A DNA stretch of 64,000 nt from contig NZ_CP009631.1 of the NCBI RefSeq assembly GCF_000959445.1, positions 2,604,001 through 2,668,000 on the forward strand, given 5' to 3'. Made by a program: the position numbers and the translations under genes. Every line of letters begins with the position of its first letter. The first letter of the stretch is position 1. This DNA comes from Burkholderia vietnamiensis LMG 10929 (GTDB taxonomy: Bacteria; Pseudomonadota; Gammaproteobacteria; Burkholderiales; Burkholderiaceae). This document shows, piece by piece, positions 9,885 to 33,374 of the stretch. The notes under the pieces are model-generated. The model was not told the DNA's origin. It worked only from the letters and a program-made list of their open reading frames with translations, and ran no database searches.

Positions 9885-11558
9885 ATGAGACGGAAATATT
9901 TTCACCAGAAACTGACGCACCTGAATTGCAAGATTAAAGATATTGGACGGGCGGCATTGCCGGTTTTATTGTCGACTGCGATAACCGGATGTGGTGGTGA
10001 CGACAATGTCACATCGCAGGTTTTCTCGTGTGCCACCGACGTCTATCCATCGAATACCGGGGCTACCACGCCAGCGCCCATTCTGGCATCCCCTCAAGTC
10101 TGGAGCTTTGTTAGCGCGCCAAATCTGCACCCGATGAAAGTGAATGTCAATTACTCCGATCCCGTGCGGCTGGCCGAGGGATTGATTTTCAATTCACCTT
10201 ATACGAGCTCGAATACCGCAATGTATGGGCAGAATGGCGCGTTAATTGCCGACAATGCCGGAAACCCGGTGTGGTTTAACGCATTGAATAGCGTAAGCCT
10301 GATGAATTTTGATTTTCGCGTCCAGCAATACTTTGGCATGCCGGTTTTGACTTTCTGGCAAGGCACCGTTGCTACGCCGCCCGCCTACACCAACTTGCCG
10401 TCCGGCGCAGCAGAGCCAGGAGCATGTTATTACATCGTCAATAACCGTTACCAGACAATAAAAACCGTCTCCGCACGCAATGGCTTTGTTGCCGACAATC
10501 ACGAATTTCTGATTACGCCGAACAATACTGGACTATTCCTGGCAACCAAGGTGGTTCCCATGGATTTGACGCCATATGGCGGACCGAAAAATGGGGCAAT
10601 CCACGATTTTTCCATTCAGGAAGTAGATCTGACCACAAATGAGTTGGTCTTTTTTTGGGACGCGAAGGACCACATCGCGTTGGAAAGCTCGCATCTCCCG
10701 GCCTCGACTGCCACCGCCACCAGTAATGTCTGGGACCCTTACCACCTGAATTCATTGGATCTTGTGGCAAACAATAACAACGATATCGTGTTCTCGGCCC
10801 GCAGCACCTGGACGGTTTATCGCCTGCACAAGCCCACGGGTGAATTTGTCTGGAAGCTGGCTGGAGACGGAAGCGGAGATTTCAAGATTCCCGCGGGTAA
10901 TGCGCAATTTTCATGGCAACATGATGCCCGCTATATCTCCGATAATGTAATCAGCATGTTTGATGATGCTTGCGATGATTGTTATGCATCAATTCCGCCA
11001 GGAACCGCACCTTCACATGGCCTGGTGCTGAATCTCGATTTCAACAACATGGTCGCAACGGCACAGACGTCGTACTACCACAATCCAAACCTCTTCTCCT
11101 CCGCGCAAGGAAACACGCAATGGCTGGGAAACGGCAATAAATTTATCGGCTGGGGGAACGGGTATTACACTGAATTTGCGCAGCCCGGCAACACTGAATT
11201 AACGCCTGCGACCAGCACACTGTATGACGTAAAAATGGCTGGCGACAACATCTCGTACCGGACGTATCGGCAGGCGTGGGTGGCTACGCCATATTATCCG
11301 CCAAGCGTAACGGTCGCATCTGGTGACAGCGGCCCGGCCGTATATGCTTCGTGGAACGGTTCAACGGAAACGAGATCTTGGCAAGTATACGCCGGTGCTG
11401 CCGCGAATAATTTGAGACTCATAGCCAGCAGCGCGAAAACCGGTTTTGAGACGAAAATCCCCTTGACCGGGAATAGCTATGCTTATGTTCAAGTCAAGGC
11501 GATCGACAACGCTGGCGCAATTATCGGGGTCTCTGATATTAAAAATATATTCAAATAA
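9885..11558 (+). CDS. Arylsulfotransferase-like lipoprotein
   Basis: 557 aa from the ATG at 9885, preceded by GAAGGGGG. A lipoprotein signal (ALPVLLSTAITGC) predicts a lipidated periplasmic or surface protein. The body resembles the arylsulfotransferase (ASST) family, a beta-propeller that moves sulfate between phenols: HEFLITPNNTGLFLATKVV, IHDFSIQEVDLTTNELVFFW, DPYHLNSLDLV, then QFSWQHDARYISDN with the conserved His. The C-terminal ~90 residues look like a fibronectin-III-type domain (SGPAVYASWNGSTETRSWQV). Substrate unknown. The gene is clearly AT-richer than its surroundings, with Asn-, Ser- and Thr-rich codon use, so it is probably recently acquired. Function by family only. Confidence 0.8.
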   Translation: MRRKYFHQKLTHLNCKIKDIGRAALPVLLSTAITGCGGDDNVTSQVFSCATDVYPSNTGATTPAPILASPQVWSFVSAPNLHPMKVNVNYSDPVRLAEGLIFNSPYTSSNTAMYGQNGALIADNAGNPVWFNALNSVSLMNFDFRVQQYFGMPVLTFWQGTVATPPAYTNLPSGAAEPGACYYIVNNRYQTIKTVSARNGFVADNHEFLITPNNTGLFLATKVVPMDLTPYGGPKNGAIHDFSIQEVDLTTNELVFFWDAKDHIALESSHLPASTATATSNVWDPYHLNSLDLVANNNNDIVFSARSTWTVYRLHKPTGEFVWKLAGDGSGDFKIPAGNAQFSWQHDARYISDNVISMFDDACDDCYASIPPGTAPSHGLVLNLDFNNMVATAQTSYYHNPNLFSSAQGNTQWLGNGNKFIGWGNGYYTEFAQPGNTELTPATSTLYDVKMAGDNISYRTYRQAWVATPYYPPSVTVASGDSGPAVYASWNGSTETRSWQVYAGAAANNLRLIASSAKTGFETKIPLTGNSYAYVQVKAIDNAGAIIGVSDIKNIFK

Positions 11559-12030
11559 AGCGGTTATTGGAAATTCCGGTCCTCAATAAGTGGATCCCCG
11601 GCAGAATCTGGCAACGACGCCGCAAGACGCAGTAAGCGGCGACTCCTGCCGCGGTCGGCATGGACGCGATGTCAGCATCGGTGTGATCGCAGTGAGCACC
11701 GCACTGGTGGCCGGCGCGCGGTCAGTGAGGCAGCCGTTCTGACTGTGCCGCGGCCTGCTGCTGCAGGGCGAACTGAACGACAGCAGATTCGGGACGTCGG
11801 TCCACACCTCCGCCAGAGAATCTGCCGGATCGACGAGTCGAGTACGTGTGAGCTGCTCTGTAGCACGACATGACGCTCACCGAACCGCTTGCGTCGACAC
11901 CGAGCGATGGCCGCAGACCCAGAGAACGAAACGGCACGGATGCTTCGCGCCCGCGGACAATTCCCCGCGGCTCCCCCGAAAGCCATCCGTCTTGCGAAGC
12001 AAACCTTGGGCAAAAAATCCGCCCCAAATG
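11559..12030. other. Gap, no gene recognised
   Basis: About 470 bp between the lipoprotein gene and the second attachment site. GC returns to the high local value. Several overlapping open frames exist on both strands, but none has an SD or a recognisable domain. It is probably decayed island DNA. Confidence 0.4.
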
Positions 12031-12064
12031 GAAAAGGCCTTACAAGCATTGCTTGTAAGGCCTT
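12031..12064 (-). terminator. Terminator of the second tRNA-Pro remnant
   Basis: Perfect 14-bp stem AAGGCCTTACAAGC/GCTTGTAAGGCCTT with a 3-nt loop. On the minus strand it ends in TTTTCC, directly downstream of the tRNA 3' end. Confidence 0.88.
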
Positions 12065-12070
12065 GATTCC

Positions 12071-12119
<49 letters not shown>

Positions 12120-12287
12120 TTTTTTGTCGCATCCGTCGAGTTCCGCTGGCGTCCGAGAAAACACCCCAATGCATTGATTTTAATGCTTATTTTCTCAAGA
12201 ACTTGCCCTAGCAATTCCATTACAATACGACCCAAGCTTCCGGATCTGTGGGGGCAAATGTGGGGGCAATTTCCCCCGGAGGTTGCA

Positions 12288-13688
12288 ATGAGCACGCTCA
12301 CCACGAAGGAATTGCAAGGGCTAATCCCAGCTGACAATGGCCGTCGCCTGTCCGATGGACATGGTGTTTTTGGTGTGGTCCGTGCCGGGGTGAAGGGCAT
12401 ATCGGTTCAATTTTCATTGCGCTATCGAGCAGGCGGCGGCGTCCGCGAGATCCGTCTCGGTACCTTTCCGAAGGCGAGCCTGCGCCAGATCAGAGATGCC
12501 CGCGACCGTGCGCGTGCACGCATTAGTTCCGGGGAAGATCCGCTGGAACAGAGACGCATCGAAAGGCTGAAGAAACTAGTCGACGTGAACGCAGAAGTCC
12601 GCACCCTCGAGGACAAGCTCGCGCGTAGGACGTTCAAACAGCGATTCAACGAGTGGGCCGACTCCGCCTTGCGGAAGCGGGCAGACAACGGACAAGAAGT
12701 CCGTCGAGCATTCAAAAAGGATGTCCTTCCAGTGATCGGCGACATCGCGATGGAAGACGTACGCCGCTCTGACATCATGTCCTCACTGGACGCGATTATC
12801 GCGCGAGGCGCAAACCGGCTCGCCAACCGGACTCTCACCGATCTCAAACAATTCATCAAATGGTGCCAGGCGCGGGAGTACGTTTCCGCCAATCCTCTGA
12901 TGATGGTCTCAAAGAAGGATGTCGGCGGGACAGACGCCGAACGAGAACGAACCCTTTCCGATCACGAGATCGGCGCCTTTCCGAAAGCACTGGAGTCCGC
13001 GAACTTGCCGGAACCCACAAAGCACGTATTGATGTTGATCTTGGCGACCAACGCACGCGTGGGCGAGGTCATTAAGGCACGCAAGCGCGACATCAACCTT
13101 GAACTTCGGACTTGGCGCGTACCAATTGAAAACGCGAAGAACGGGGATGCACACATTGTATTTCTGTCTGACTACGCCACAACGCACATGAGCGCACTCT
13201 TTCACCTGTCCAACAGTAAGGAATGGCTGCTACCCGCCCGCCGGCACAAGGACAAACCAGAAACGCACATTGACCTCAAAAGTATCACCAAGCAGGTAGC
13301 CGACCGTCAGTTAGTCTTTTACGAGCGTGGCGCACATACGAACCGAACCGCTAAAACGAATTCCCTCGTTCTCGGCGACGAAAAATGGACTCCGCACGAC
13401 TTACGGCGAACAGCCGCCACCTTGATGCAGGCGACGGGAGTATTGCCCACCGTGATCGACAAGTGTATGAACCACCGCGAGCAGAACCGCATGAAACGCA
13501 TCTATCAGCGGTACCCATATACGGTCGAGAAGCGCGCCGCATGGCACCTGCTGGGGGCACGACTGGACCAACTGACGGGCCTGGATCGATTTGCAGAACG
13601 AGCTGAGCATGACGGGGCCACGGAAATGAGGGAGCACGCCATGCAGGCTGCCGCGATCGACGTCTCGACATCAGAGCCGGGGGGATAG
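12288..13688 (+). CDS. P4-type tyrosine integrase
   Basis: 466 aa from the ATG at 12288 (SD CCGGAGG). It catalyses island integration and excision at the adjacent tRNA-Pro 3' end. The N-terminal DUF4102-like arm-binding part contains NGRRLSDGHGVFGV and REIRLGTFPKASLRQIRDAR; a core-binding domain spans about 130-230. The catalytic domain has the first Arg in NARVGEVIKARKRDI, the HxxR box in TPHDLRRTAATLMQ, a late His in CMNHREQN and the nucleophilic Tyr in RIYQRYPY. Its 5' end lies 170 bp from the tRNA remnant, the standard arrangement. All catalytic residues are present, so it should be active. Confidence 0.92.
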   Translation: MSTLTTKELQGLIPADNGRRLSDGHGVFGVVRAGVKGISVQFSLRYRAGGGVREIRLGTFPKASLRQIRDARDRARARISSGEDPLEQRRIERLKKLVDVNAEVRTLEDKLARRTFKQRFNEWADSALRKRADNGQEVRRAFKKDVLPVIGDIAMEDVRRSDIMSSLDAIIARGANRLANRTLTDLKQFIKWCQAREYVSANPLMMVSKKDVGGTDAERERTLSDHEIGAFPKALESANLPEPTKHVLMLILATNARVGEVIKARKRDINLELRTWRVPIENAKNGDAHIVFLSDYATTHMSALFHLSNSKEWLLPARRHKDKPETHIDLKSITKQVADRQLVFYERGAHTNRTAKTNSLVLGDEKWTPHDLRRTAATLMQATGVLPTVIDKCMNHREQNRMKRIYQRYPYTVEKRAAWHLLGARLDQLTGLDRFAERAEHDGATEMREHAMQAAAIDVSTSEPGG

Positions 13689-14017: not shown

Positions 14018-16261
14018 TTACTCGCCATCGCAACAAGCACTTCCGAGCTCACTGGCGAAAGCCAACGCGCCATCAATATCCAGATGTGTCGACGCGAACG
14101 CACGCCGCCTCACTTTTTCAGGTAGCGCCCAATCCCATTTCTCTTGCTCGAGATTTTCAATTTTCCCGAGCGAATCCAGGGCTGTCGTCGCATCCCATTC
14201 ACCGATCTCCCCAAAGACGTTGACTAGACGGTCAACGTTTCCGTTGGTAACGCTGACGACCACACCACCGTTGAAGGCATCGATTTTGTGGGCCTTGAGC
14301 AGCAAGACGAGTGTGTCGTTAATCCAGTCACCGCGCCAAGTAGCGATGTGCACTTCCGCTCCTTCCGATATGAACGTGGCGGAAGCCAACGAGGCATCAG
14401 CATAGTAGCGACGTGCCTCTTGCAGCAGTTCACGACCTCGTGCGTCCAGAGTGAGTTCCGCCTGGTCACTTGCAAGAACGCGCCGCATTTCGCGCCGAAC
14501 TTCGTCGTGAACCATTGCACCGTAGCCGTCAAATTGTGGCGGCGCACCACCGTGGTCAGGCAGCACATAGATGGTCTTGTTTTCCTGATCTACTTCCTGG
14601 ACGCGCCAGCGCCGCCCAGCAAAAATCAGCCCCTGTCCGATTGTCAGTGGATGTGCTACTGGCAGGCTCCCGAGTTGGCGCCCTTTGGCAATCAGTCGGA
14701 ACTCCTCGTCAGTCGCAAACGCGGAATAGAACTCATAGTGGTTGACCAACTTCTCGCCCGCCTCGCCGTGCAGCAGCAGGCCGTTCGACGACTGCACAAT
14801 GAGGTCGAGCTTGCCAAGATGAAGCAGAATCTCCGTGAACGTCTGCTTATCGATCGCGTTGAACGTGCCGCTCGCAATCAGGCTGCTCCATAGATATCCT
14901 GCAGTGCACCCTCCGCGTTCAGCGATGATTGAAAGAATCTGTTGTACGAGAGTCGATGCATGGAGGCCGCCGATTCGTGGTGGCTCGAACCATTTCCGCA
15001 TCAGCAGATGCACCATAGCGACCGACTGAACCAGACCTTCGCGTATCCTGTCCGAAAAGTCGGACTGCGGTGTTAGATCGGACTCTATACAGTAGCCACG
15101 GAGGATGGATGGTTCTCCTTTGCGGCGGCCGGATCGACCTAGACGCTGACGCAGGCTCGCCACCGAGGGCGGTGCCCCAATCTGCGCAATACTCTTCACT
15201 GAGCCAATATCGATTCCGAGTTCAAGTGTAGTCGTGCAAATGGCGCTAGCCGGTCTTGCACCTTCCTTCAAAGCTCGCTCGGTGTCCTCTCGTAGTTCCT
15301 TCGAAAGGCTTCCGTGGTGAGGCCAGAATTCGTTGGGATACGCGTCGCGCTCGCACGCGCGGCGCAAAAGATCCGCGTACGTTTCCACCTGTCTGCGGCT
15401 GTTCGGAAATATGAGATTGTTAGAGCCGCGCAACGACGCATAAAGCTGATTCGCAACGTCAACGGTACTTCCTGGGAGCGCATCCTCAAGCTCCGGACTT
15501 TCAAGATCAGGTTCGCGCTCTACGCGTGGCGGTCGATGCACGAAGCCCTTGATTAGGACCTTCAGCTCCTGAGTGGTACTTTTTGACTCAATGATGCCAA
15601 TCGTCGACTCGCCACCCGGACGCAAGAACCGCGCGGCGAGCTGCATGTCCCCGAGGGTCGCCGATAGGCCGACACGTGGCACTGCATGACCACATGCACG
15701 TTCAACGCGATACATCAAGGACTGAAGCTGCTTTCCTCGCTCGGAGCCGATAAAAGCGTGCAATTCGTCGACAACGATGTAGCGCAGAGAAGCGAATGTC
15801 GCCTCCATGGACGACCCGCGGTTGACGAACATCGCTTCTAGGGATTCGGGTGTTATCAGAAGAACGCCCGTCGGATTCCTGAAAAATCGCTGCTTCTTAC
15901 TGCTGGAAACATCACCGTGCCATCCGACAACGGAAATCTCTAGCTCCTCGCAAAGGCTATCCAGCCGAGACCACTGGTCGTTGATGAGAGCCTTAAGGGG
16001 ACTAACGTAAAGAACTGATCCACTGCACGGAGACTCGCGCAGCAGGTTTGACAAGATCGGAAGAAATGCCGCTTCAGTCTTCCCAGCCGCTGTTTGGGCC
16101 GCAATGATGATGTCTCGGTCGGCATTGATTAGCGCAGGCACCGCACGCTCCTGCGCGTCGCGCAACTCAGTCCACCCTTCTCTCCAGATCCACCGGCGAA
16201 TCCTTTCGTCGAGAAGGTCAAAGCTCCTCGAATCAGCCGAGGCGGAAGCTGGCGAATTCAT
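14018..16261 (-). CDS. Lhr/BrxHI-like SF2 DEAD/DEAH helicase
   Basis: 747 aa from the ATG at 16261, overlapping the ATPase gene by 29 bp. Superfamily 2 helicase motifs appear in order: Q-motif region LRDAQERAVPALI, Walker A in AAQTAAGKTEAAF (about 54-66), Walker B as VVDELHAF (about 158), SATLGD (motif III) and QRLGRSGRR (motif VI). An Lhr-type C-terminal region of about 300 residues follows. The closest functional class I can name is the Lhr-like helicase BrxHI of some BREX systems, which pairs with a BrxD ATPase as here. No PglZ, PglX or methylase is present, so this is not a BREX locus. It is the last gene of the TerB-ATPase-helicase operon. Confidence 0.85.
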   Translation of the reverse strand: MNSPASASADSRSFDLLDERIRRWIWREGWTELRDAQERAVPALINADRDIIIAAQTAAGKTEAAFLPILSNLLRESPCSGSVLYVSPLKALINDQWSRLDSLCEELEISVVGWHGDVSSSKKQRFFRNPTGVLLITPESLEAMFVNRGSSMEATFASLRYIVVDELHAFIGSERGKQLQSLMYRVERACGHAVPRVGLSATLGDMQLAARFLRPGGESTIGIIESKSTTQELKVLIKGFVHRPPRVEREPDLESPELEDALPGSTVDVANQLYASLRGSNNLIFPNSRRQVETYADLLRRACERDAYPNEFWPHHGSLSKELREDTERALKEGARPASAICTTTLELGIDIGSVKSIAQIGAPPSVASLRQRLGRSGRRKGEPSILRGYCIESDLTPQSDFSDRIREGLVQSVAMVHLLMRKWFEPPRIGGLHASTLVQQILSIIAERGGCTAGYLWSSLIASGTFNAIDKQTFTEILLHLGKLDLIVQSSNGLLLHGEAGEKLVNHYEFYSAFATDEEFRLIAKGRQLGSLPVAHPLTIGQGLIFAGRRWRVQEVDQENKTIYVLPDHGGAPPQFDGYGAMVHDEVRREMRRVLASDQAELTLDARGRELLQEARRYYADASLASATFISEGAEVHIATWRGDWINDTLVLLLKAHKIDAFNGGVVVSVTNGNVDRLVNVFGEIGEWDATTALDSLGKIENLEQEKWDWALPEKVRRRAFASTHLDIDGALAFASELGSACCDGE

Positions 16262-17531
16262 CGTCACCCTCGGTCGCCACGTCACTCATGCCCCCGGTGT
16301 CTTTCTCGACTTCGAGCGCGCCGATCAGTTGCTGCCATTCAGCTGTTGGATTCTGTTCGAGTACGGCCAAGAGATTGATGAAGGCGGTAATCGTAGTTCG
16401 TGGCGTGCGAAAATATTGGTCGCCGAGACGCATCGCGCAATGAGCCATGAAAGCGGGAATAGCTTCGGCCGGCAGTTGCGCCTTTGCCTCGTCGCCGAAC
16501 GCATGCACGAGGCGAATCTTGTCCAGCAGAACATAGAAGTCTTCCGGCGTAAGACTGGCAAGCCGGATGACGGGGCCCGTGTAATCGACAAGCCCGCTCG
16601 TGGCGAATGTATTTTCTGCGAGTCGCGACTGGAGAGCCGTATAGCTGTAAAGCCCGCGTTTCGTGTCCAACAGAAATTCAGGCGTGCCACCGAGGACGAA
16701 TCCGAGCCCTTCAGCAGAACCCTGAAGAGAGTCGTTCAGGATCCTCAGGATTTGTTCGTAGTTCGCGTTCCGTGCCTGAACGTTCGCGAGCTTGTAAAGA
16801 TTGACCAGTTCATCGAGGCACACCAGCAGCCCGCTGTACCCTGCAAGTCTTACGAAACGTGCCATTAGCTTAAGTTGGTCGTAGACCGACGCATCATCAA
16901 TGATAGTGCGTACGCCCAGCGCGGCACGTGCATCCGTCTTCGTAGTGAACTCACCTCTCAACCAGCGAACGGCATCACCCTTGAGCTGCTCATTTCCCTC
17001 TTCAAACCCACGGCAATATGCGGCGATGACGTCGGCGAAATCGTATCCGTTGACCATCTCGGTCAACTGGTTGAGCTGAGCACGAATAGCCTCTTCGCTC
17101 GTTCGCCCTGCTGCCTTTGCTTCGGTTTTTGCTTGGCCGATGAATTTTTCGACGATGGCCGCCATGGCACCGCCATCAGCCTTCGTACGTGTTGAGATGT
17201 TCTTCGCCAGTTCAGCGTACAACGAGCGCGCCTGCCCGCCCGACGCATGCAATCGGCGGTCGGGATTCAGGTCCGCGTGGACCGTGACAAGTTTTTTCTC
17301 CAGGGCAATAGCCCGCACGAGATTCAAGAAAAACGTCTTGCCTGCACCGTACTCACCGGTCACCACGCGGAAACTCGATCCGCCATCGGCGACGCGCGCG
17401 ATGTCCTGGATCAGGGCATCGAGTTCTTTCTGACGACCCACCTGAATCAGGTGTTGTCCGATTCGCGGAACGACGCCCGCGCGGAGTGACTGAAGAACCG
17501 CATCGCGATCCTTGGGACGAATTGTTGTCAT
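16233..17531 (-). CDS. BrxD-like P-loop ATPase (DUF2791 type)
   Basis: 432 aa. P-loop NTPase with Walker A in GEYGAGKTFFLNLVRA (about 59-74) and Walker B in GLLVCLDELVNLY (about 240). The overall pattern (RVVTGEYGAGKT, LVTVHADLNPDRRLHA, FVLGGTPEFLLDTKRGLYSY) fits the BREX BrxD/DUF2791 ATP-binding family. The ATG at 17531 overlaps the TerB stop (ATGA) and the gene overlaps the helicase by 29 bp, so the three are translationally coupled. BrxD proteins act with a BrxHI helicase; what the pair does outside BREX is not established. ATPase activity is well supported, biological role is inference. Confidence 0.85.
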   Translation of the reverse strand: MTTIRPKDRDAVLQSLRAGVVPRIGQHLIQVGRQKELDALIQDIARVADGGSSFRVVTGEYGAGKTFFLNLVRAIALEKKLVTVHADLNPDRRLHASGGQARSLYAELAKNISTRTKADGGAMAAIVEKFIGQAKTEAKAAGRTSEEAIRAQLNQLTEMVNGYDFADVIAAYCRGFEEGNEQLKGDAVRWLRGEFTTKTDARAALGVRTIIDDASVYDQLKLMARFVRLAGYSGLLVCLDELVNLYKLANVQARNANYEQILRILNDSLQGSAEGLGFVLGGTPEFLLDTKRGLYSYTALQSRLAENTFATSGLVDYTGPVIRLASLTPEDFYVLLDKIRLVHAFGDEAKAQLPAEAIPAFMAHCAMRLGDQYFRTPRTTITAFINLLAVLEQNPTAEWQQLIGALEVEKDTGGMSDVATEGDDEFASFRLG

Positions 17532-19930
17532 GCTGCTAACCGTTGTGCAAGTTCCTGATTGATTTCGATTGGGTCGTCCCCGTCAATGAGCGGTTCGTCC
17601 CAGTGATCAAGCGCAGCCTCATTGACCTGTTCAATGGCGCCATCTAGCATCATTTCAAGGTCAGATGCAGCATCGACCAACTCCGCGCGCGTCCATTTCG
17701 GCCTCGTCAGCAGCAGCCGAAGGAACGCCGAGTGAGCATCGTCCATCCCGAGCAAGCTAAAGGACTCTGACTTCGTTGCCAGGGCAGCGGCGTGATCCGA
17801 AACTAGCTGGGCGCCCGACTCCTCGTCGGCAAACACGCCGGCCAACATTGCGGATACCTTCGCAGTCTCCTTTTGGAGCGCTTCGATTCGAGCGGAATCA
17901 AGTGTGAAGGTCGGCTGCGACGACACAAGCTTCAACGTAGGTGCGTTGGTGTGCGCTTGCGACAAGCTTGGAGAACCAACAACGGCATTACCGTGTAGAT
18001 CCCTATATAACTGCTGCGGGTCGAGTCCGAGCATCTGGTACACTTTTTCTAGCAGCTTGACTTCCGCCGGCGACACAACACCGTCCGCGTTTGCGGTCTG
18101 GATCAGCAGCGTTGCAAGGGAACGCTTCGCGTCCACCGATAGTGGCTCAAGCCGCTTTTTGAGGCTTGCCAGAGTCGGCGGTTGTGCGATCTGCACCTGC
18201 ACACGTGCTTTGAGCCGATCCTGCTGACGTGGGGCCATCTGCGACCAGGATTCAATCTGTCGATAGATGAGATCAATTTCGGGCTCCGTCGCCGCCCCAT
18301 CAGCCATCGCGATCGAAGCAGCCATGTCCACCATCAACGCTAGCGTGAGATATGTCTCGTCCGCCAGGTTTGTGGAATTGCTAGGTGGCGTCGTGTACAA
18401 CGCCACAAAATCCGTGTTCTTCGGTGTGCGCCCCGAAATTCGCACATCCGGCTCCATTGCTACGCCGGCTTCTCCAAGCACGCGAGCGAGGGTCGCCAGC
18501 TTGTCGCGCGTGAGGTTCCCTGCTGCCTTAAACCGCTCAAACAGATTTCCGAAAGTTGTCACGACGGTACTACTAGCGACTGACGTGACGAGTGTTTCGA
18601 GTTCGAGTCGAGCACTCTCCTGCCAAAGCTCAACCGGGAGTAGGAGGGTGCTTTCCAGCGTACCCTCTGCGTCTGGGTTCCGCCCCAAAAATCTGCTGTA
18701 AGCGTCCAGTGCATCGGTGCACTCGTACACCAACTCCTGTAGCTTGTTTCTCGGGCCGGTCACGGCCGTGAGATCGGGCAACGAGGTAATGTAGTCGGGA
18801 TATTCAATTTCGCGGAGCGCGTAGAACGATGTGGACGCAGGCGCTCGAAGCTTCGTTTTGTTCACGGGCAGTCTCATCCCGTCGCGATACTTCTCAACGT
18901 ACTTCCTCTCGAACAACTGACGGAATTCGCGGGCACAACGGGTCACCGGCGTACGCTTGTTGACGGCACCGTCACCCAACACCCACGCGAGGGCCCACTC
19001 GACAGGAACGGGCGCTTTGTCCACCGACGCCTGGCCGAACGCTACGCGTATGCTAAGTGGCACTTCGAATGTGTTGCTGATTGGGCCTGGCCTCTGCTCA
19101 TACTGCCGCCTGGGATGCACCGAATGCACGGAGATGAACTCGAGCAGATTGTCGACAGCGCTCGTGGAAAGCGTGTTCGAATATACAGTTTTCAGACGCA
19201 GCAGCTCAGTCGCGATAGCATCGAACTCCCCCTTTTCGACGCGGCCCTGCATCCCATCCACGAGAACACGGCGTTCGAGTCCGTGGAGGTAGAACTGTAC
19301 GAAGCCTCGATGCAATTGCGGATCTGACCGGTCGGATGCCAGCCATTGGATATATGTTCGTCGATGTGCAGCAGAAAACGAGTTGTAACTCAGCCAGTAG
19401 TCTTCGGGACCAACCGAGCTTTCACTCCCTTTCGCTGCCACGTTCGAATTCGGAACAACAGCGCACGCATCGAGGCCTTGGTACCCCTCGCCTCGTCGCG
19501 GTGTACCGAGAAAGAACATACCCCCAGTAATCGTTGTTCCGGCAATGTCCACAGCCTCGCCGCGATTGATCCAGTGAACTTTTGGCGAAGACTCGACGCT
19601 CGGGGGCGCGATCCGATAGGATGAGCCAGTTGAATCAGATGACAGTGTTACTGTCAAAAATTCCTCATCGTGCTCTGGCCGGGTCTCTAATGTAGCTTTC
19701 GGCATAACCTCCGCCGGCCCAATAGATTGCGACTCCGCCGAGCTTGTGCTCATGGAGTTCGTTGTCGGGGGCAATTGCTTTTTCTTTGTAAGGGCGGAAA
19801 TGCTTACACAGACAAGGGTGAACACCAAAGCGATCGTCCAGCTCCCTTTCGGGGCCACAACGATAGCAATCAATAGGGCCATGACGAGCACGCCCACCCC
19901 AGCACCCGACTTTTTTGCCTTGCGGCTCAT
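17528..19930 (-). CDS. TerB-N/TerB/TerB-C membrane protein
   Basis: 800 aa from the ATG at 19930; the open frame extends upstream, but that part has no good SD and atypical composition. Two adjacent membrane segments (GVGVLVMALLIAIVVAP and the following hydrophobic stretch) lie at about 9-45. A TerB-N domain runs from about 115 (KVHWINRGEAVDIAGTTITG, GYQGLDACAVVPN) through a Trp-containing region. A central TerB helical domain at about 525-645 has two acidic metal-site motifs, MADGAATEPEIDLI and ADGVVSPAEVKLLEKVY. TerB-C lies at about 680-790 with an acidic end. TerB folds bind metal and associate with membranes. It is first in the operon with a BrxD-like ATPase and BrxHI-like helicase, implying membrane-linked DNA processing or defence. 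Confidence 0.82.
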   Translation of the reverse strand: MSRKAKKSGAGVGVLVMALLIAIVVAPKGSWTIALVFTLVCVSISALTKKKQLPPTTNSMSTSSAESQSIGPAEVMPKATLETRPEHDEEFLTVTLSSDSTGSSYRIAPPSVESSPKVHWINRGEAVDIAGTTITGGMFFLGTPRRGEGYQGLDACAVVPNSNVAAKGSESSVGPEDYWLSYNSFSAAHRRTYIQWLASDRSDPQLHRGFVQFYLHGLERRVLVDGMQGRVEKGEFDAIATELLRLKTVYSNTLSTSAVDNLLEFISVHSVHPRRQYEQRPGPISNTFEVPLSIRVAFGQASVDKAPVPVEWALAWVLGDGAVNKRTPVTRCAREFRQLFERKYVEKYRDGMRLPVNKTKLRAPASTSFYALREIEYPDYITSLPDLTAVTGPRNKLQELVYECTDALDAYSRFLGRNPDAEGTLESTLLLPVELWQESARLELETLVTSVASSTVVTTFGNLFERFKAAGNLTRDKLATLARVLGEAGVAMEPDVRISGRTPKNTDFVALYTTPPSNSTNLADETYLTLALMVDMAASIAMADGAATEPEIDLIYRQIESWSQMAPRQQDRLKARVQVQIAQPPTLASLKKRLEPLSVDAKRSLATLLIQTANADGVVSPAEVKLLEKVYQMLGLDPQQLYRDLHGNAVVGSPSLSQAHTNAPTLKLVSSQPTFTLDSARIEALQKETAKVSAMLAGVFADEESGAQLVSDHAAALATKSESFSLLGMDDAHSAFLRLLLTRPKWTRAELVDAASDLEMMLDGAIEQVNEAALDHWDEPLIDGDDPIEINQELAQRLAA

Positions 19931-21605: not shown

Positions 21606-22751
21606 CTAGTCCTGCGCCGACGATGTACGTCTTACGACAGTTGTCATTTGCTCAGCAGAAGGCACGAAGACAGCGACATTGCCCGACCAAGCACCTATTC
21701 CCTTGACCTTCAGGTCAAAAGCGAACACTTGCCAGTTCTCTCGTCCGGCCGGACCTACAAGGCTGACGTCTTTCACCTGCGTCACGCTTTGCATCGGGGT
21801 ATATTGGCTCGTTTGAACTGGATCGTGAAATGGCACGCACGACAAGCGGATCATATCCAGCTTAAGCATCCTTGATAACCAGGGCGAGTTACCGTATAGC
21901 GCTGCATACTCGCCTACGCGAGAGCCAAATTTCGGATAGAAGGGGGACTCCCCTCTGATCATCGACAACTTGTCTTTGATGACCTGTGGCAGCGACGCCA
22001 GTCCAGATACCGTAGCTATATCGTGAAACCGGGAAAGAATGTCACCGCTTTCATCCGTCTCCATCGTCGAGCCGAGCGAATTCACGTCCTTGCGCTCGAA
22101 AGCCGGCGCGATCGGACAGAGGATTTCGAGGCGCCCGGCAACAAAGCGCCAAGTAGGCGGCGCTACTAGTTCACGACCGTCTCCCCATGCATTGCTAAGG
22201 ACGTAGCAATCGTACGGATCGTGCTCATCGTAACGATCGATGAACTGCATTAGTGCGTGATGGTCCCCCTGGACGAAATGTTCGACCGCGAAGTGCCACT
22301 GGTCCCGTCCTCCGCTTACGGGAGATGCAGTACAGATCACCTCGGGTCCGATCGCTATCAGGTCAGAGTGTACCGCGGAAGTCGCATAGGAAGACCGAGC
22401 CGCGCTCAGCTGCATACCAACCCTATGGAGGTGTTCTTCCTTCATGGCGCGGAGGACATCCGCAGTGTACGTCACCTCATCCCGATCAATGAGGACGCTG
22501 TGGTTGCTGCACAGCCAAATACCATTGCTAATATGCCGGCGCTCATCTGAGGTCATCTCTTTTAGGTACCGCCGGCTCCCGGGGCCCTCGGCAGCGCCAT
22601 GAATATGTGCGGCCACACCTATGCTGGCGACTGCCATGTCCGACTCATCGCTAGGTCCCGATGTTGGACAGTCGCATCCTCGAAACGAACACCGATAGTT
22701 CGCCCGAGCAGCGAGTGCGTTCCTTGTCTTTGAATCGAAGTCGTCGCGCAT
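21606..22751 (-). CDS. HNH endonuclease-like protein
   Basis: 381 aa. The N-terminal ~115 residues form an HNH module: CSFRGCDCPT (Cys pair), IGVAAHIHGAAEGPGSRR (AH of the first motif), then NGIWLCSNHSVLIDRDEVTY (N and H of the second motif, with Cys). This NGIWLC..H..ID pattern is typical of HNH proteins in restriction and other phage-defence loci. The remaining ~260 residues have no recognised domain and may be a sensor or target-recognition part. Two genes follow closely downstream. With the TerB-ATPase-helicase operon starting 1.7 kb downstream on the same strand, a common defence role is plausible but unproven. Confidence 0.75.
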   Translation of the reverse strand: MRDDFDSKTRNALAARANYRCSFRGCDCPTSGPSDESDMAVASIGVAAHIHGAAEGPGSRRYLKEMTSDERRHISNGIWLCSNHSVLIDRDEVTYTADVLRAMKEEHLHRVGMQLSAARSSYATSAVHSDLIAIGPEVICTASPVSGGRDQWHFAVEHFVQGDHHALMQFIDRYDEHDPYDCYVLSNAWGDGRELVAPPTWRFVAGRLEILCPIAPAFERKDVNSLGSTMETDESGDILSRFHDIATVSGLASLPQVIKDKLSMIRGESPFYPKFGSRVGEYAALYGNSPWLSRMLKLDMIRLSCVPFHDPVQTSQYTPMQSVTQVKDVSLVGPAGRENWQVFAFDLKVKGIGAWSGNVAVFVPSAEQMTTVVRRTSSAQD

Positions 22752-27655: not shown

Positions 27656-28459
27656 TCATAACACCTCGCGAAACATCTGTCGGAGCCTTTTATCGGACAC
27701 GTCCAGATACGGCAAAACGTGGTCAAGCTCCGCATGACCTAGAAGCTGCTGCACCGTCTCAAGATCGTGCCCCTGCTCAACGAGGTTACTGGCAAACGAG
27801 CGTCGGCCCGAATGGGACGATCCACCGCGTATCCCAGCGCCCCTGTAGAGCTTTGTGACGTGTGATTGCAAGCTGTCACACGCAGCGTAATCAACCTGCT
27901 CCCCGGCCTCGTTGACGCGGCGCTTGGTGTTCATCGCAAACTTGCGACCCTTGCCAGCAAGGACGAGGCACGTTGACGGTGCAAGTCCGCGATAGCGCTC
28001 TGCGGTTAGCTCGGTTCCCATGCCGCGTGCAATGCGATGGTTCAGATAGCACTCCAGGGCCGAAACCGTTTTCGGATGCGTGAAATAAACGCATCGTTGC
28101 CGACAACCCTTCGTGATTGCGGCCCGAAGACTGACCTCCGAACGGATAGCGCCCGATGGAAAAAGCACGTCTTGAACTTCGATTTGAGCTATTTCGCTGA
28201 CGCGCATTCCGCACGTAATGCCTAGCAGGAGAACGAGACAATCGCGCTCAGGATGGCGCGATGTTGCAGACGTGACGGCGAGTAGATGCCGGATTTGAGC
28301 CGGTCGAAGTGTTGCAGCTTGGGCCATGCGTCCCTCTGAATGAATCGGTTGAATGACATATTCAGAGAGAGATTTGGTTAGGGTCTTTTTCAAGCGTACC
28401 ACGGCTTGTTTCTTCGATTCCTCGGAAAATTCGGCGCGGCGCTGAGATTCCATTACCAT
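27656..28459 (-). CDS. Tyrosine recombinase/phage integrase
   Basis: 267 aa, shorter than most integrases. The catalytic domain begins at about 50 (MAQAATLRPAQIRHLLAVTS). First Arg in GITCGMRVSEIAQI; HxxR box in SHSGRRSFASNL; late His in QQLLGHAELDHVLPYL; the Tyr follows at once. The N-terminal arm/core-binding domain is reduced to ~45 residues, as in some plasmid or ISC-type recombinases. An ATG at about 28327 is a possible later start. Divergent from the H-NS-like gene. It could be the recombinase of the small-gene element at 23-27 kb. Confidence 0.85.
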   Translation of the reverse strand: MVMESQRRAEFSEESKKQAVVRLKKTLTKSLSEYVIQPIHSEGRMAQAATLRPAQIRHLLAVTSATSRHPERDCLVLLLGITCGMRVSEIAQIEVQDVLFPSGAIRSEVSLRAAITKGCRQRCVYFTHPKTVSALECYLNHRIARGMGTELTAERYRGLAPSTCLVLAGKGRKFAMNTKRRVNEAGEQVDYAACDSLQSHVTKLYRGAGIRGGSSHSGRRSFASNLVEQGHDLETVQQLLGHAELDHVLPYLDVSDKRLRQMFREVL

Positions 28460-28817: not shown

Positions 28818-28947
28818 CGACGCGCGCAAGCGAATTTCGCACCGATATAGTGCTCCACGGTCGGGGCGTACCTGACGACAGCGATTGCCACCGGCAACCC
28901 GATACTTGCGTTACCCTGTTTCGGTACGGTTGCCCTGGGAGTCGGCG

Positions 28948-29739
28948 ATGTGCTATTCGGCAAAAATCCAAGCCAACTATCGTGAGTACGTGCGACGTTA
29001 CGGTGCCGAGATGGACATCGAGACGTTCCGCCGCCTGTTCTTCGCGCGTGCGGCCGGGAGCGACATCAAGATTCCGAAGGCGGTCGACGCGGCGCTCGTA
29101 GGTGTCGACGAGGAAATCTCGGCCGCAATCGCCGCGTATCGAAGCCAGCGAACACGGAAGCTCGAGACGGATCTGTTCGAGCAGCGCACTCGGCTCGCCG
29201 CGGCAGAGAAGAATCTCGCCGTGAAAATCACAAAGAAGGCTGGCGAGGACGTCAGGATTGCCACCGACAAGATCGAAGCCGCGCAGCGCGGGCTGGATGA
29301 TCTTCGCCGTCGGGATCTACAGGAGCGCGATTCCCGGATTTTCCCCGGCTGGTACGCTCCCGTGCTCATCGAGCTCGACGGCAAGCGCGTTGTTGTGCCG
29401 ATGCGTTACCGGTGCCGTCTGCCAGGCTGGACCGAGGCAGACGAGAAGCAGAAGCCCGGGACTTACAACGCGCGGCTGGACAGTCTGTCGACGGCTTGGC
29501 GCAAGGTCTTCGGATTCACGCATGGCCTCGTACTCGTCGACGCCTTTTTCGAAAACGTTAAGCGCGACGGCCAGAACGTCGTGCTGCGTTTCGATCCGAC
29601 GCCGCGGCAACCGATGCGGGTCGCGTGCCTGTGGACGCGCACCGAGATCCAGGGCGGCGACGACTTATGGTCGTTCGCCGCGATCACCGACGACCCACCG
29701 CCGGAAGTGGAGGCAGCTGGCCACGACAGATGTTTCTGA
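28948..29739 (+). CDS. SRAP-family (YedK/HMCES) protein, C-truncated
   Basis: 263 aa from the ATG at 28948, so Cys2 is the catalytic residue (MCYSAK). SRAP proteins form thiazolidine crosslinks to abasic sites in single-stranded DNA and protect them. Visible: the NARLDSLST segment with the conserved Asn, a Glu in DAFFENVK, and the catalytic His motif AAGHDRC. Between residues 60 and 140 there is a long coiled-coil insertion. The usual C-terminal ~50 residues after HDRC are missing, replaced by a stop and an inverted repeat, so it is truncated and perhaps inactive. Confidence 0.82.
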   Translation: MCYSAKIQANYREYVRRYGAEMDIETFRRLFFARAAGSDIKIPKAVDAALVGVDEEISAAIAAYRSQRTRKLETDLFEQRTRLAAAEKNLAVKITKKAGEDVRIATDKIEAAQRGLDDLRRRDLQERDSRIFPGWYAPVLIELDGKRVVVPMRYRCRLPGWTEADEKQKPGTYNARLDSLSTAWRKVFGFTHGLVLVDAFFENVKRDGQNVVLRFDPTPRQPMRVACLWTRTEIQGGDDLWSFAAITDDPPPEVEAAGHDRCF

Positions 29740-30545: not shown

Positions 30546-31433
30546 TTACTTCTTGAACCTCGGCGTCCAACGCTCAACGAGATCGTCCTCGTCGTCGCCT
30601 TCGTCGGCATAGGCTTCCTGGCCGATCGTGCGCGAGGACAGCACCGTAAGTGTCTTGCCATAGCGGCCGAGTCCGATCACTTCTTCCCTAACGATGCTTG
30701 AGCGCTTGCCACCGAGCCAGTCCAGAACATCGATCTCTTCCTCGTCGCGCTCTGCTCGAACAACTCTGCTGCCGTCGGCGTTGAATCGCGCGGTCACCGT
30801 GCTCTTTGGCACGGGCGAGCCGCGCTTCAGCCAGGTCAGGTCCGGCAGCGACTTCATGGCCTCAGATAGGATGCAGTAGTCAATGGCGCCGCCCGTGCTC
30901 AGGATGACTGCAATGGCGTCGTCCGTCAGCTCCGCGTAGCGGATGGCGGTGGAGGTCAGCGATGTCTTGCATGCCTCGCGTGCGGACTCGATATCGGCGA
31001 GGCCGAGGCGGGCCCGGCCCATGAGCCTCCTAAAGGGCTTCGCCGGCATCAGAAGGCCGACCGCGAAATTGTCCGCCTCCTGCTCATAAGGGTCGCCGGA
31101 TGAAAAGCCTGCGTGCGATGTATGTATGCCGTCGTTCGGCAGCACATGATCGATGTGACCGTCGAGGAAATAGTGGCCCAACTCGTGGGCCACGCTGAAC
31201 CGCTGAAATCCCTCGTTCGGAATGTCCGAGGCATAGAGGATGCCGAAGGCGTTCCCGTGCCGCAGCAGCATCCCGGACACGCCGGACTCGGTATCTGGCT
31301 TCGCCTGCACTACGATGTCGTGCTTTTGGGCAATCGCATACGGATCGACCGGCAGGTCTGTAATCTTCTCTTCGGCAAGGACGGCCTCGCCGCGCTGTTT
31401 CGCGAGTTTGAGGCGCAGCAGCAGGCTCGTCAT
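30546..31433 (-). CDS. capP: CBASS-associated metallopeptidase CapP
   Basis: 295 aa. ImmA/IrrE-type peptidase with zinc motif HELGH at H83/E84/H87 and a downstream acidic ligand in YEQEADNFA (about 116-124). A C-terminal ~100-residue part (from about 195) probably senses a signal. In known CBASS loci such a peptidase (CapP) cleaves the paired repressor CapH after DNA damage, inducing the immune operon. Here it follows an XRE regulator by 3 bp and both point away from cdnC, exactly that arrangement. The name is based on context plus family; the peptidase call itself is secure. Confidence 0.88.
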   Translation of the reverse strand: MTSLLLRLKLAKQRGEAVLAEEKITDLPVDPYAIAQKHDIVVQAKPDTESGVSGMLLRHGNAFGILYASDIPNEGFQRFSVAHELGHYFLDGHIDHVLPNDGIHTSHAGFSSGDPYEQEADNFAVGLLMPAKPFRRLMGRARLGLADIESAREACKTSLTSTAIRYAELTDDAIAVILSTGGAIDYCILSEAMKSLPDLTWLKRGSPVPKSTVTARFNADGSRVVRAERDEEEIDVLDWLGGKRSSIVREEVIGLGRYGKTLTVLSSRTIGQEAYADEGDDEDDLVERWTPRFKK

Positions 31434-31436
31434 CGA

Positions 31437-31784
31437 TCATTTCCCTTGCTTGTTTCGCTCGGCGAGCATCTTCAAGAAGTCCTTGGCTAACTCGCGGTCA
31501 TTGCCTGTCAATTTGCTGACATCGCGGAAGAGCGGGTCAGCGGCTTGTGCCATTGTGGGGTCGTCGACCCTACCTAGCAGGTAGTCCGTCGTTACTTCAA
31601 GCGCGTTCGCGAGACGTCTGAGTGTATCGAACGACGGCTTGCGCGAGCCGGATTCGAAATGCGCGATCGAGCTGGGCGGCATGCTTGCCTTCTCGGCCAG
31701 TTCGCCCTGGCTCCACTTGCGCAACTCACGGGCGGCCCTCAGTCGTTCCTGGAAGAGGTCGGAGGGGGTACGTTCATCGGTCAT
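31437..31784 (-). CDS. capH: CBASS-associated XRE repressor CapH
   Basis: 115 aa. XRE-type helix-turn-helix at about 10-70: LRAARELRKWSQGELAEKAS, PPSSIAHFESGSRKPSFDTL, LANALEVTTDYLLGRVDD. A C-terminal helical part (FRDVSKLTGNDRELAKDFLK) could dimerise or be the cleavage region. Its start codon lies inside a CATGTCTAG repeat that recurs before cdnC, so it likely represses both its own and the CBASS promoter. Cleavage by the neighbouring CapP would derepress. Assignment by analogy with CapH-CapP pairs. Confidence 0.85.
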   Translation of the reverse strand: MTDERTPSDLFQERLRAARELRKWSQGELAEKASMPPSSIAHFESGSRKPSFDTLRRLANALEVTTDYLLGRVDDPTMAQAADPLFRDVSKLTGNDRELAKDFLKMLAERNKQGK

Positions 31785-31864
31785 GTCTAGTTCGCCATAA
31801 AAAAATTGACTCCTTTTTTGTGATTAGTATAGACTAGACATGTGTGGTATGTCGAGTTCGACAT
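31782..31864. promoter_or_regulatory. capH-cdnC promoter and CapH operators
   Basis: Three related elements: CATGTCTAGT at 31782-31791, its inverse CTAGACATG at 31834-31842, and the near-perfect palindrome ATGTCGAGTTCGACAT at 31849-31864. A plus-strand promoter TTGACT (31806-31811), 16 bp, TATAGA (31828-31833) reads into cdnC; the CTAGACATG site starts directly at its -10 end, where a bound repressor would block it. Confidence 0.75.
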
Positions 31865-31885
31865 GCCCTACCATGAGGGAAGCCG

Positions 31886-32851
31886 ATGAGCCAAGAACAC
31901 GTTAGTCATGCCGAGATCGTGCGCTTTGCCCAAGACAGGGTCAACCTGCCCAAAGACAAGGCGGACGTGTTCCGTGCCCAGGCCAGACGCCTGCGCGAGC
32001 GGCTGGAAACCTACCTGACCGAGCATCCAGACTTCACTCTGAAGAAGATGCTGCTTGCCGGCAGCCTCGCCAAGGGCACGGCACTGCGCTCCCTGAATGA
32101 CATCGACGTGGCCTGCTACATAAGCGGTGCCGAGGCGCCGCACGAGGTGTCGGCGCTCCTGGAGTACCTTGCGGAGCGGCTGCGCAGGGCGTTCCCAAAC
32201 TTCACTGCGGACCAGGTGAAGCCGCAGACTTACAGCGTGACGGTGTCGTTTAAGGGCACCGGGCTGGATGTCGACGTGGTGCCGATCCTCTATGACGGCG
32301 ACCCCAACTGGTACGGAAACCTCATCAGTCAGGACGACGGCTCGTTCCTCAAGACCAACATCCCGCTGCACCTCGAATTCATCCGCAAGCGCAAGCGTGT
32401 GCAACCCGAGCACTTCTCTCAGGTGGTCCGGCTGGTGAAGTTCTGGGCAGCGCGAATGAAAGCTGCCGATGAAAACTTCAGGTTCAAGTCGTTCATGATC
32501 GAGTTGCTCCTTGCGAAGCTCGCAGACGATGGTCTGTCCTTCTCCGACTACCCGGAGGCGCTGCAGCACTTCTTCACTTATCTCGCGCGCACCGACCTGA
32601 AGGAGGAGGTGTTCTTCACCGACAACTACCCAGCGTCGGCGATCGGCACCTTCAGCCAGCGCGTGCAGATCATCGATCCGGTAAACGGCTTGAACAACGT
32701 CAGTCGGCTCTACACGGACGCAAATGCCTCGGCGATCTATGAGGCCGCGATCGACGCCGGAGATGCCATCGACTCGGCGCTCTCGGCGCCGACTAAGCAA
32801 GAGACCGTCTACTACTGGCAGAAGGTCTTCGGTTCGGCATTCCAGGGATAA
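31886..32851 (+). CDS. cdnC: CD-NTase CdnC (CBASS nucleotide cyclase)
   Basis: 321 aa. Nucleotidyltransferase core GSLAKGTALRSLNDIDVA has G59-S60 and the metal-binding D72 and D74; the third carboxylate is in GLDVDVVPI (about D130). The sequence closely follows, from memory, the CdnC of the E. coli MS115-1 CBASS operon, also beside HORMA, TRIP13 and NucC. It makes a cyclic trinucleotide (cAAA in the characterised system) when bound by activated HORMA protein. SD GAGGGAAG. First gene of the operon, transcribed from the CapH-controlled promoter. Confidence 0.95.
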   Translation: MSQEHVSHAEIVRFAQDRVNLPKDKADVFRAQARRLRERLETYLTEHPDFTLKKMLLAGSLAKGTALRSLNDIDVACYISGAEAPHEVSALLEYLAERLRRAFPNFTADQVKPQTYSVTVSFKGTGLDVDVVPILYDGDPNWYGNLISQDDGSFLKTNIPLHLEFIRKRKRVQPEHFSQVVRLVKFWAARMKAADENFRFKSFMIELLLAKLADDGLSFSDYPEALQHFFTYLARTDLKEEVFFTDNYPASAIGTFSQRVQIIDPVNGLNNVSRLYTDANASAIYEAAIDAGDAIDSALSAPTKQETVYYWQKVFGSAFQG

Positions 32852-32861
32852 GAGAGGAACC

Positions 32862-33374
32862 ATGTCCAGCTACACCTACACCGAATCCACTACATTCACG
32901 GTCACGCATGCGCGGCATATGGCGGCAAAGATCTCTGCTGACCTCAAGCGCATGCAGCGCTTCTACGGTCATCCCAGCGACAGTAGCATCGTCAGCTACG
33001 AGAGCGAGGCGATCGAACTGCTGAAAGCGGGATATTTCGGAACGCTCACGGTCGGCTTCCTGCGTGACGGCCAGTGGATCGAGCCGACGCTGCGTTATTC
33101 GGCCCGCGATCTCGCAGGCATGGTAGCGAATGACGACGACCCGGGGCGGGTGCTTCCGGGGCGCGACATTTCGGGCGCAACCTTCTACAACTACCTTACA
33201 TACTCGGCGGCTTGGTACACGTTGTCGGATAGTCAGAGGGATACTTTCAAGCGGCAGATGCCGTTCTATCGAACAGAAAGGACACAGCCGACGGTGAACG
33301 GATATTTGGTGGATGACAAGACATACTCGGCCGGCGGTCGGGCCCTCAACCGCGCAAGTGTGAGGGCCTATTGA
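32862..33374 (+). CDS. cap7: CBASS HORMA-domain protein Cap7
   Basis: 170 aa from the ATG at 32862 (SD AGAGAGGAAC). Bacterial HORMA1-type protein: HARHMAAKISADLKRMQRFY, IELLKAGYFGTLTVGFLRDG, and a C-terminal safety-belt part with RQMPFYRTERTQPTVNGYLV. In these systems HORMA senses a peptide, presumably a phage protein, and in its closed form activates CdnC. It follows cdnC by 10 bp and overlaps cap6 by one base. Recognition relies on the conserved gene order as much as on sequence, since HORMA proteins diverge fast. Confidence 0.88.
   Translation: MSSYTYTESTTFTVTHARHMAAKISADLKRMQRFYGHPSDSSIVSYESEAIELLKAGYFGTLTVGFLRDGQWIEPTLRYSARDLAGMVANDDDPGRVLPGRDISGATFYNYLTYSAAWYTLSDSQRDTFKRQMPFYRTERTQPTVNGYLVDDKTYSAGGRALNRASVRAY

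What the first reader, a model, noticed from the sequence alone, without database searches (positions are those of the whole stretch)
14018..19930. TerB-N/C membrane protein + BrxD-like ATPase + BrxHI-like helicase operon without BREX
Three tightly coupled minus-strand genes (ATGA overlap, then a 29-bp overlap) combine a membrane-anchored TerB-N/TerB/TerB-C protein with a BrxD-like ATPase and an Lhr/BrxHI-like helicase. BrxD and BrxHI are known as a pair in some BREX types, but no PglZ, PglX, PglY or methylase is present. The third partner is a metal-binding, membrane-linked TerB protein. Comparative work on ter genes has, as I recall, predicted TerB-linked DNA-processing complexes, but I know of no experimentally described system with this exact trio. 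It is on an island beside nuclease-like genes and is my main candidate for an undescribed defence or DNA-processing system.
Basis: partly seen in the sequence, partly recalled or inferred. Interest (0 to 1): 0.85.

Follow-up and report, generated by a model that had tools for sequence, protein, structure and literature searches.

The report
Shango anti-phage operon on integrated island
The three coupled genes are a complete copy of Shango, an anti-phage system already tested in other bacteria, carried here by a roughly 90-kb mobile island; it is a known system in a new place, not a new one.

Summary
The three genes (sngA 17528-19930, sngB 16233-17531, sngC 14018-16261, minus strand) match PADLOC's Shango models nearly end to end: SngA 3.7e-89, SngB 2.2e-182, SngC 9.3e-283. 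They score far better as Shango than as BREX, and the genome shows no PglZ. Shango protects P. aeruginosa PAO1 10-100-fold against many phages (PMC10250203, passages). The trio keeps order and strand in 80 of 80 close relatives. By TerB_N domain alone, 17 of 249 family genomes are positive, and 16 of these also have sngB and sngC. The operon lies on a ~90.7-kb island in tRNA-Pro(GGG) with 52-bp att repeats, an integrase and an empty site in a relative, with a full type III CBASS. My searches listed no paper on Shango's mechanism. Best guess: a membrane-tied complex in which ORC-like SngB loads the SngC helicase on invading DNA. A divergent Shango with degenerate TerB residues in relatives is the freshest by-product.

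The parts
12067..12118 (.). attL: 52-bp direct repeat, piece of tRNA-Pro(GGG), left end of the island; attR is at G000:C3:2706815-2706866, outside the window
   Evidence: exact 52-bp repeat; intact tRNA-Pro at the right end; uninterrupted site in G064
12114..13688 (+). tyrosine integrase of the island, directly beside attL
   Evidence: Pfam Phage_integrase 2e-17, Arm-DNA-bind_3, Phage_int_M
14018..16261 (-). sngC, SF2 helicase, 747 aa from ATG (open frame to 16285)
   Evidence: PADLOC SngC 9.3e-283, 938 bits (BrxHI 432 bits); Pfam DEAD, Helicase_C
16076..16099 (-). SngC motif I AQTAAGKT (residues 55-62)
   Evidence: K61 and T62 in 81 of 81 sequences
15758..15769 (-). SngC motif II DELH (residues 165-168)
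   Evidence: D165, E166, H168 in 80 of 81, one gapped
16233..17531 (-). sngB, BrxC/BrxD-family AAA+ ATPase, 432 aa
   Evidence: PADLOC SngB 2.2e-182, 605 bits (BrxD 155.5 bits); Pfam BrxC_BrxD 5.1e-153
17334..17357 (-). SngB Walker A GEYGAGKT (residues 59-66)
   Evidence: K65 and T66 in 81 of 81
17528..19930 (-). sngA, TerB_N-TerB-TerB_C protein, 800 aa from ATG (open frame to 20407)
   Evidence: PADLOC SngA 3.7e-89; Pfam; start by homologue lengths
19787..19903 (-). SngA predicted membrane hairpin, residues 10-48
   Evidence: hydropathy; helices 12-25 and 31-49 in the model, modest confidence there
18944..19561 (-). SngA TerB_N domain, residues 124-329, with the GLERR motif
   Evidence: Pfam; E219, R220, R221 in 81 of 81
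18008..18331 (-). SngA TerB domain, residues 534-641, two DG-x5-E motifs
17537..17920 (-). SngA TerB_C domain, residues 671-798; winged-helix-like arrangement in the model (weak)

Best explanation
The locus is a complete Shango anti-phage system (sngA-sngB-sngC), cargo of a ~90.7-kb integrase-bearing island in tRNA-Pro(GGG) (shown by sequence). Inferred way of working, about 0.4 likely among mechanisms: SngA is held at the membrane by its N-terminal hairpin and uses its TerB (metal) and TerB_N/TerB_C parts to recruit SngB and perhaps to sense infection; SngB, an ORC/Cdc6-like AAA+ ATPase, oligomerises and loads the SngC helicase on invading or replicating phage DNA; SngC unwinding stalls phage DNA replication or exposes that DNA to host nucleases, as no nuclease domain was recognised in the three proteins. 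Shown: gene identity by models, order, coupling, intact ATPase and helicase motifs, conservation. Inferred: complex, membrane attachment, loading, outcome. The confidence given is for the identity.
For: All three PADLOC Shango models match nearly end to end and beat the BREX models; the curated BREX_BrxD model is missed (149.9 against a 350-bit cut-off). Same order and strand in 80 of 80 loci, the best 80 of 405 by SngA likeness; sngA-sngB gap, estimated from alignment ends, -1 to 14 nt in 77 of 80; estimated sngB-sngC distance -32 to +28 in 80 of 80. By TerB_N alone, 16 of 17 positive genomes (of 249) also have sngB and sngC. SngB Walker A and B residues unvaried, SngC motifs I, II and VI unvaried apart from gaps. 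No other gene stands out beside the trio among the 40 largest clusters from 83 loci. Anti-phage activity tested in P. aeruginosa, E. coli work cited there (PMC10250203, passages). SngC falls in a potentially distinct clade with BrxHI, DruE and DpdJ (PMC12278908, passage). ORC-Cdc6 class of BrxD, its tight pairing with BrxHI and possible helicase loading are argued for type 2 BREX; Shango is not mentioned there (PMC12839542, passages).
Against: No phage test of this copy. The tested E. coli and PA14 Shango proteins were not fetched, so identity rests on models, not on direct comparison. SngA is long (800 aa) against a 528-position model. The hairpin is not universal: 57 of 80 loci show two N-terminal hydrophobic segments, 11 one, 12 none. 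Of the 12, L073 is cut by the contig end, L053 has the hairpin in another frame and L017 in a separate frame upstream; L020, L022 and L025 showed no hydrophobic frame within about 1 kb upstream; four of the 12 were not looked at further, L073 among them. In SngA of G096, G123 and G011, D616, E551 and E623 are lost and D544 is lost in two of three, although their SngB matches Shango, so TerB metal binding cannot be needed everywhere. In G011 about 5 kb lie between sngA and sngB, so coupling is not universal either.
Confidence: 0.95

Rival explanations
1. Shango, but working as an abortive system: SngB-SngC sense phage DNA structures and SngA is the effector that harms the membrane through its hairpin.
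For: Two N-terminal hydrophobic segments in 57 of 80 SngA; no nuclease domain recognised in the trio (the PADLOC list for SngC was cut at 25 of 54).
Against: 12 of 80 SngA show no N-terminal hydrophobic segment under the simple test; in three of the eight looked at closer (L020, L022, L025) none was found just upstream either. [quoted passage not shown]
Confidence: 0.15
2. Shango, but working as a genome-integrity sensor as Hachiman does: SngC patrols DNA and its activity on damaged or phage DNA releases or activates SngA.
For: SngC is an SF2 helicase; HamB also appears, far weaker (1.6e-16), among its matches. Hachiman shows the principle (PMC12278908, abstract start in search listings, and passages).
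Against: No HamA-like match seen in the trio; SngC sits in another clade than HamB (PMC12278908, passage); Hachiman is described there as two proteins, without an AAA+ partner.
Confidence: 0.2
3. A BREX remnant or BREX accessory pair that lost PglZ/PglX and gained a TerB protein.
For: SngB and SngC share families with BrxD and BrxHI.
Against: No PglZ match in the genome; Shango models score far higher; BREX_BrxD cut-off missed; the trio recurs in 80 of 80 loci. Whether BREX genes lie near those 80 loci was not searched by model.
Confidence: 0.02
4. A general ter-type stress or DNA-repair complex whose phage effect is secondary.
For: TerB family; metal-binding type motifs.
Against: Patchy distribution (SngA match in 7 of 65 genus genomes, the own one included), carriage on an island with CBASS and on plasmids, and published phage protection.
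Confidence: 0.06

Closest known systems
Shango (SngA, SngB, SngC)
   Same: Three genes, same order, same domains, all three PADLOC models
   Different: SngA longer than the PADLOC model; no phage test of this copy
Type 2 BREX (BrxD + BrxHI pair)
   Same: Homologous ATPase and helicase families, tight pairing
   Different: No PglZ match in the genome; BREX_BrxD cut-off missed; TerB protein as third partner
Hachiman (HamA-HamB)
   Same: SF2 helicase at the core of a compact defence operon
   Different: No HamA-like match seen; different helicase clade; extra AAA+ ATPase
TerB-containing defence systems Bunzi and Dionysus
   Same: A TerB-family protein: Bunzi is listed with PF05099 (PMC10952713, passage), Dionysus as encoding a TerB homologue (PMC12926258, passage)
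   Different: Their other genes were not compared here; SngA matched only the models SngA and PDC-S48; whether the 2023 library holds Bunzi or Dionysus models was not checked

Membership tests
Shango | SngA: TerB-family protein matching the SngA model | tested here: met
   3.7e-89, model positions 12-524 of 528
Shango | SngB ATPase matching the SngB model | tested here: met
   2.2e-182, positions 4-438 of 439
Shango | SngC DEAD/DEAH helicase matching the SngC model | tested here: met
   9.3e-283, positions 3-718 of 720
Shango | Three adjacent co-directional genes in the order A-B-C | tested here: met
   same order in 80 of 80 loci and on the Aeromonas and Salmonella plasmids looked at
Shango | Intact ATPase and helicase motifs | tested here: met
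   Walker A/B of SngB; motifs I, II, SAT, VI of SngC
Shango | Protection against phage | not testable with these tools
   published for other copies (PMC10250203, passages)
BREX (type 2) | PglZ/BrxZ present | tested here: not met
   0 matches at E 0.001 in the whole genome
BREX (type 2) | True BrxD (NCBIfam BREX_BrxD cut-off) | tested here: not met
   149.9 bits against 350
BREX (type 2) | PglX methylase and BrxC/PglY | not tested
   none seen among the 33 window frames given to Pfam, apart from SngB itself, which hits the joint BrxC_BrxD model; no genome search
Hachiman | HamA nuclease beside HamB | tested here: inconclusive
   no HamA among the rows shown for the trio (SngC list cut at 25 of 54) or for 20 other window frames (one list cut at 25 of 30)

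The most novel reading that the evidence does not exclude
Shango is a membrane-tethered helicase-loading machine, an ORC-like loader and SF2 helicase held by a TerB scaffold. In it the loader is the near-fixed core (SngB median identity 79% against 59% for SngC and 39% for SngA over 80 loci) and SngA the fast-changing recruiter, which in a divergent branch has lost most TerB acidic residues and, in one genome, is doubled. If so, SngA would be the part that decides what triggers Shango.
Probability: 0.3. Interest if true: 0.5.

Novelty: new member of a known kind. Interest (0 to 1): 0.2.

Why it matters
It settles that this trio needs no new name, and gives a well-conserved set of Shango copies from which the system's unknown mechanism can be tested. 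The conservation pattern (loader nearly fixed, TerB protein variable, TerB acidic residues dispensable in one branch) points to SngA as the variable, possibly sensing, part.

Tried and rejected
BREX remnant: rejected. A fourth conserved gene: clustering of flanking frames in 83 loci, of which the 40 largest clusters were printed, gave none beyond frames that lie antisense to or overlap the trio, and groups of at most 14 loci. The nuclease-like neighbour at 21606-22751 belongs to a large family (1767 proteins at E 0.001) and has no tblastn match at 1e-8 in the 83 Shango loci or in 19 further stretches, so I do not count it as part of the system.

DNA search of the E. coli genomes with sngC found nothing, so the tested E. 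coli operon was not reached. Of 678 plasmid records with a SngA-like match, many in Klebsiella and Salmonella, I looked at three. Promoter and terminator scans were no better than shuffles. No Rfam or tRNA match in the window. Exact repeats of 14 bp or more between 11400-12300 and 14000-64000: none, because the right att site lies outside the window.

Full report
What is there. Three intact minus-strand genes lie at 14018-19930. The first two share ATGA, the last two overlap by 29 bp if sngC begins at the ATG at 16261. Pfam gives TerB_N, TerB and TerB_C for the first, BrxC_BrxD for the second, DEAD and Helicase_C for the third.

What it is. PADLOC's three Shango models match nearly end to end: SngA 3.7e-89, SngB 2.2e-182, SngC 9.3e-283. 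The BREX readings are far weaker (SngB 605 bits against BrxD 155.5; SngC 938 against BrxHI 432). NCBI's BREX_BrxD model stays under its cut-off (149.9 against 350), and the genome gives no PglZ match. So this is Shango, not BREX. The genus looks like Burkholderia by protein relatives; no tool named the species.

What is in print. PMC10250203 (abstract, outline and passages) names Shango as a three-gene TerB, ATPase and helicase system, reports 10-100-fold lower plating for many but not all phages in PAO1, and says it had also been found in E. coli (its reference 22; I recall this as Millman et al. 2022, not seen). PMC10855318 (passages) and PMC12926258 (passages) place it among systems of unknown mechanism. 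PMC11096173 (passages) shows Shango on E. coli genomic islands, PMC10221251 (passages) on a Sulfitobacter megaplasmid; PMC11888443 (passage) finds it under Gac/Rsm-type control in P. fluorescens. PMC12278908 (passages) puts SngC in a potentially distinct clade with BrxHI, DruE and DpdJ. PMC12458937 and PMC12839542 (passages) discuss BREX-type helicases without naming Shango. My searches listed no paper on a Shango mechanism or structure; most listings were capped (for example 20 of 424 and 40 of 224) and the library lacks most subscription journals.

Conservation. In 80 of 80, sngB and sngC follow on the same strand; in L012, L024, L073 and L089 sngC is only partly covered, at the end of the held DNA. 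Median identities are SngA 39, SngC 59, SngB 79%. A search of 249 genomes of the family by TerB_N alone does not depend on SngA likeness, though some of its genomes appear to be the same as loci (equal contig lengths, as G238:C17 and L087). There 17 have TerB_N; 16 of these also have sngB and sngC (in G048 the operon is split between contigs, in G033 sngB is interrupted by about 1.3 kb, in G123 about 1 kb lies between sngA and sngB) and one, G031, keeps only the first 198 residues of SngA. In the genus, 7 of 65 genomes have a SngA match at E 1e-20, the window's own included. The distribution is patchy, as for mobile defence.

Parts under constraint. In 80 loci plus the window, SngB K65, T66, D240 and E241 are unvaried (81 of 81); SngC K61 and T62 likewise; motif II D, E and H are kept in 80 with one gap, motif VI arginines in 79 with two gaps; SngA E219, R220 and R221 in 81 of 81; TerB residues D544 in 81, D616 in 79, E551 and E623 in 77 each of 81. 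N-terminal hydrophobic segments: two in 57, one in 11, none in 12 of 80; in the protein search, 87 of 119 relatives had at least one and 57 two, fragments included.

Where it lies. The left flank is continuous with relative G064 up to window position 12118, and G064's sequence beyond that point is found in the window's own genome at C3:2706861. An exact 52-bp repeat, window 12067-12118 and C3:2706815-2706866, lies in tRNA-Pro(GGG), intact at the right end and in G064. Since window position x is C3:2604000+x, the island spans about 90.7 kb, with an integrase beside attL. G064's uninterrupted tRNA is the empty site. The same island carries a complete type III CBASS: cyclase, HORMA, TRIP13, NucC and CapP and a small helix-turn-helix gene that I read as capH (by eye).

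How it may work. BrxD is classed as an ORC-Cdc6 AAA+ ATPase paired with BrxHI, possibly as helicase loader (PMC12839542, passages). Carried over to SngB-SngC, with SngA as membrane-bound recruiter, this gives the model in Best explanation, about 0.4 likely; loading, membrane attachment and outcome are inference. Against parts of it: the hairpin is missing in some loci; SngA of G096, G123 and G011 has lost D616, E551 and E623, and two of the three D544 too; in G011 sngA and sngB stand about 5 kb apart.

Verdict. A complete and ordinary Shango copy on a mobile island. Interest is low as a discovery, moderate as material for the open question of how Shango works.

Noticed in passing
window 30546-35034: Complete type III CBASS on the same island: capP (30546-31433 -), capH-like helix-turn-helix gene (31437-31784 -, read by eye), cyclase (31886-32851 +), HORMA (32724-33374 +), TRIP13 (33371-34309 +), NucC (34306-35034 +).
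   Followed up: partly
window 12067 to G000:C3:2706866: About 90.7-kb island in tRNA-Pro(GGG) with 52-bp att repeats and an empty site in relative G064. Mosaic cargo: a second integrase (27656-28459), SRAP gene (28885-29739), IS21-type (37483-38997, 52073-53590) and Tn3-type (54462-57443) transposases, VIT1 (41359-42489), COX1 (45805-47457) and cytochrome c (48228-49589) genes in the window; fimbrial usher and other genes beyond it.
   Followed up: yes
L140 (G096), L144 (G123), L150 (G011): Divergent Shango: SngA without a Pfam TerB match and with most TerB acidic residues lost, SngB matching the Shango model; G096 has two SngA-like genes in tandem (886 and 495 aa) before sngB, and in G011 about 5 kb of other genes lie between sngA and sngB.
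   Followed up: partly
window 21606-22751: 381-aa protein of a large, mostly unnamed family (1767 relatives at E 0.001); its first ~120 residues match N-terminal parts of CBASS endonuclease effectors, SAVED-HNH and SduA models. Not linked to Shango in 83 loci.
   Followed up: partly
L143 (G033): sngB interrupted after about codon 40 by an insertion of about 1.3 kb with a short duplication at the joint; the rest of the operon is present.
   Followed up: no
L017 9654-9977 and L053 9733-10044: Where SngA seems to lack the membrane hairpin, a short hydrophobic frame lies just upstream: a separate gene in L017, an apparent frame break in L053.
   Followed up: no
proteins P0089-P0092, P0096, P0099, P0118, P0119: SngA relatives with other or extra domains: TerD-like PF02342, PF01471, PF14020 (precomputed domains; the name TerD is recalled); their neighbourhoods were not examined.
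   Followed up: no
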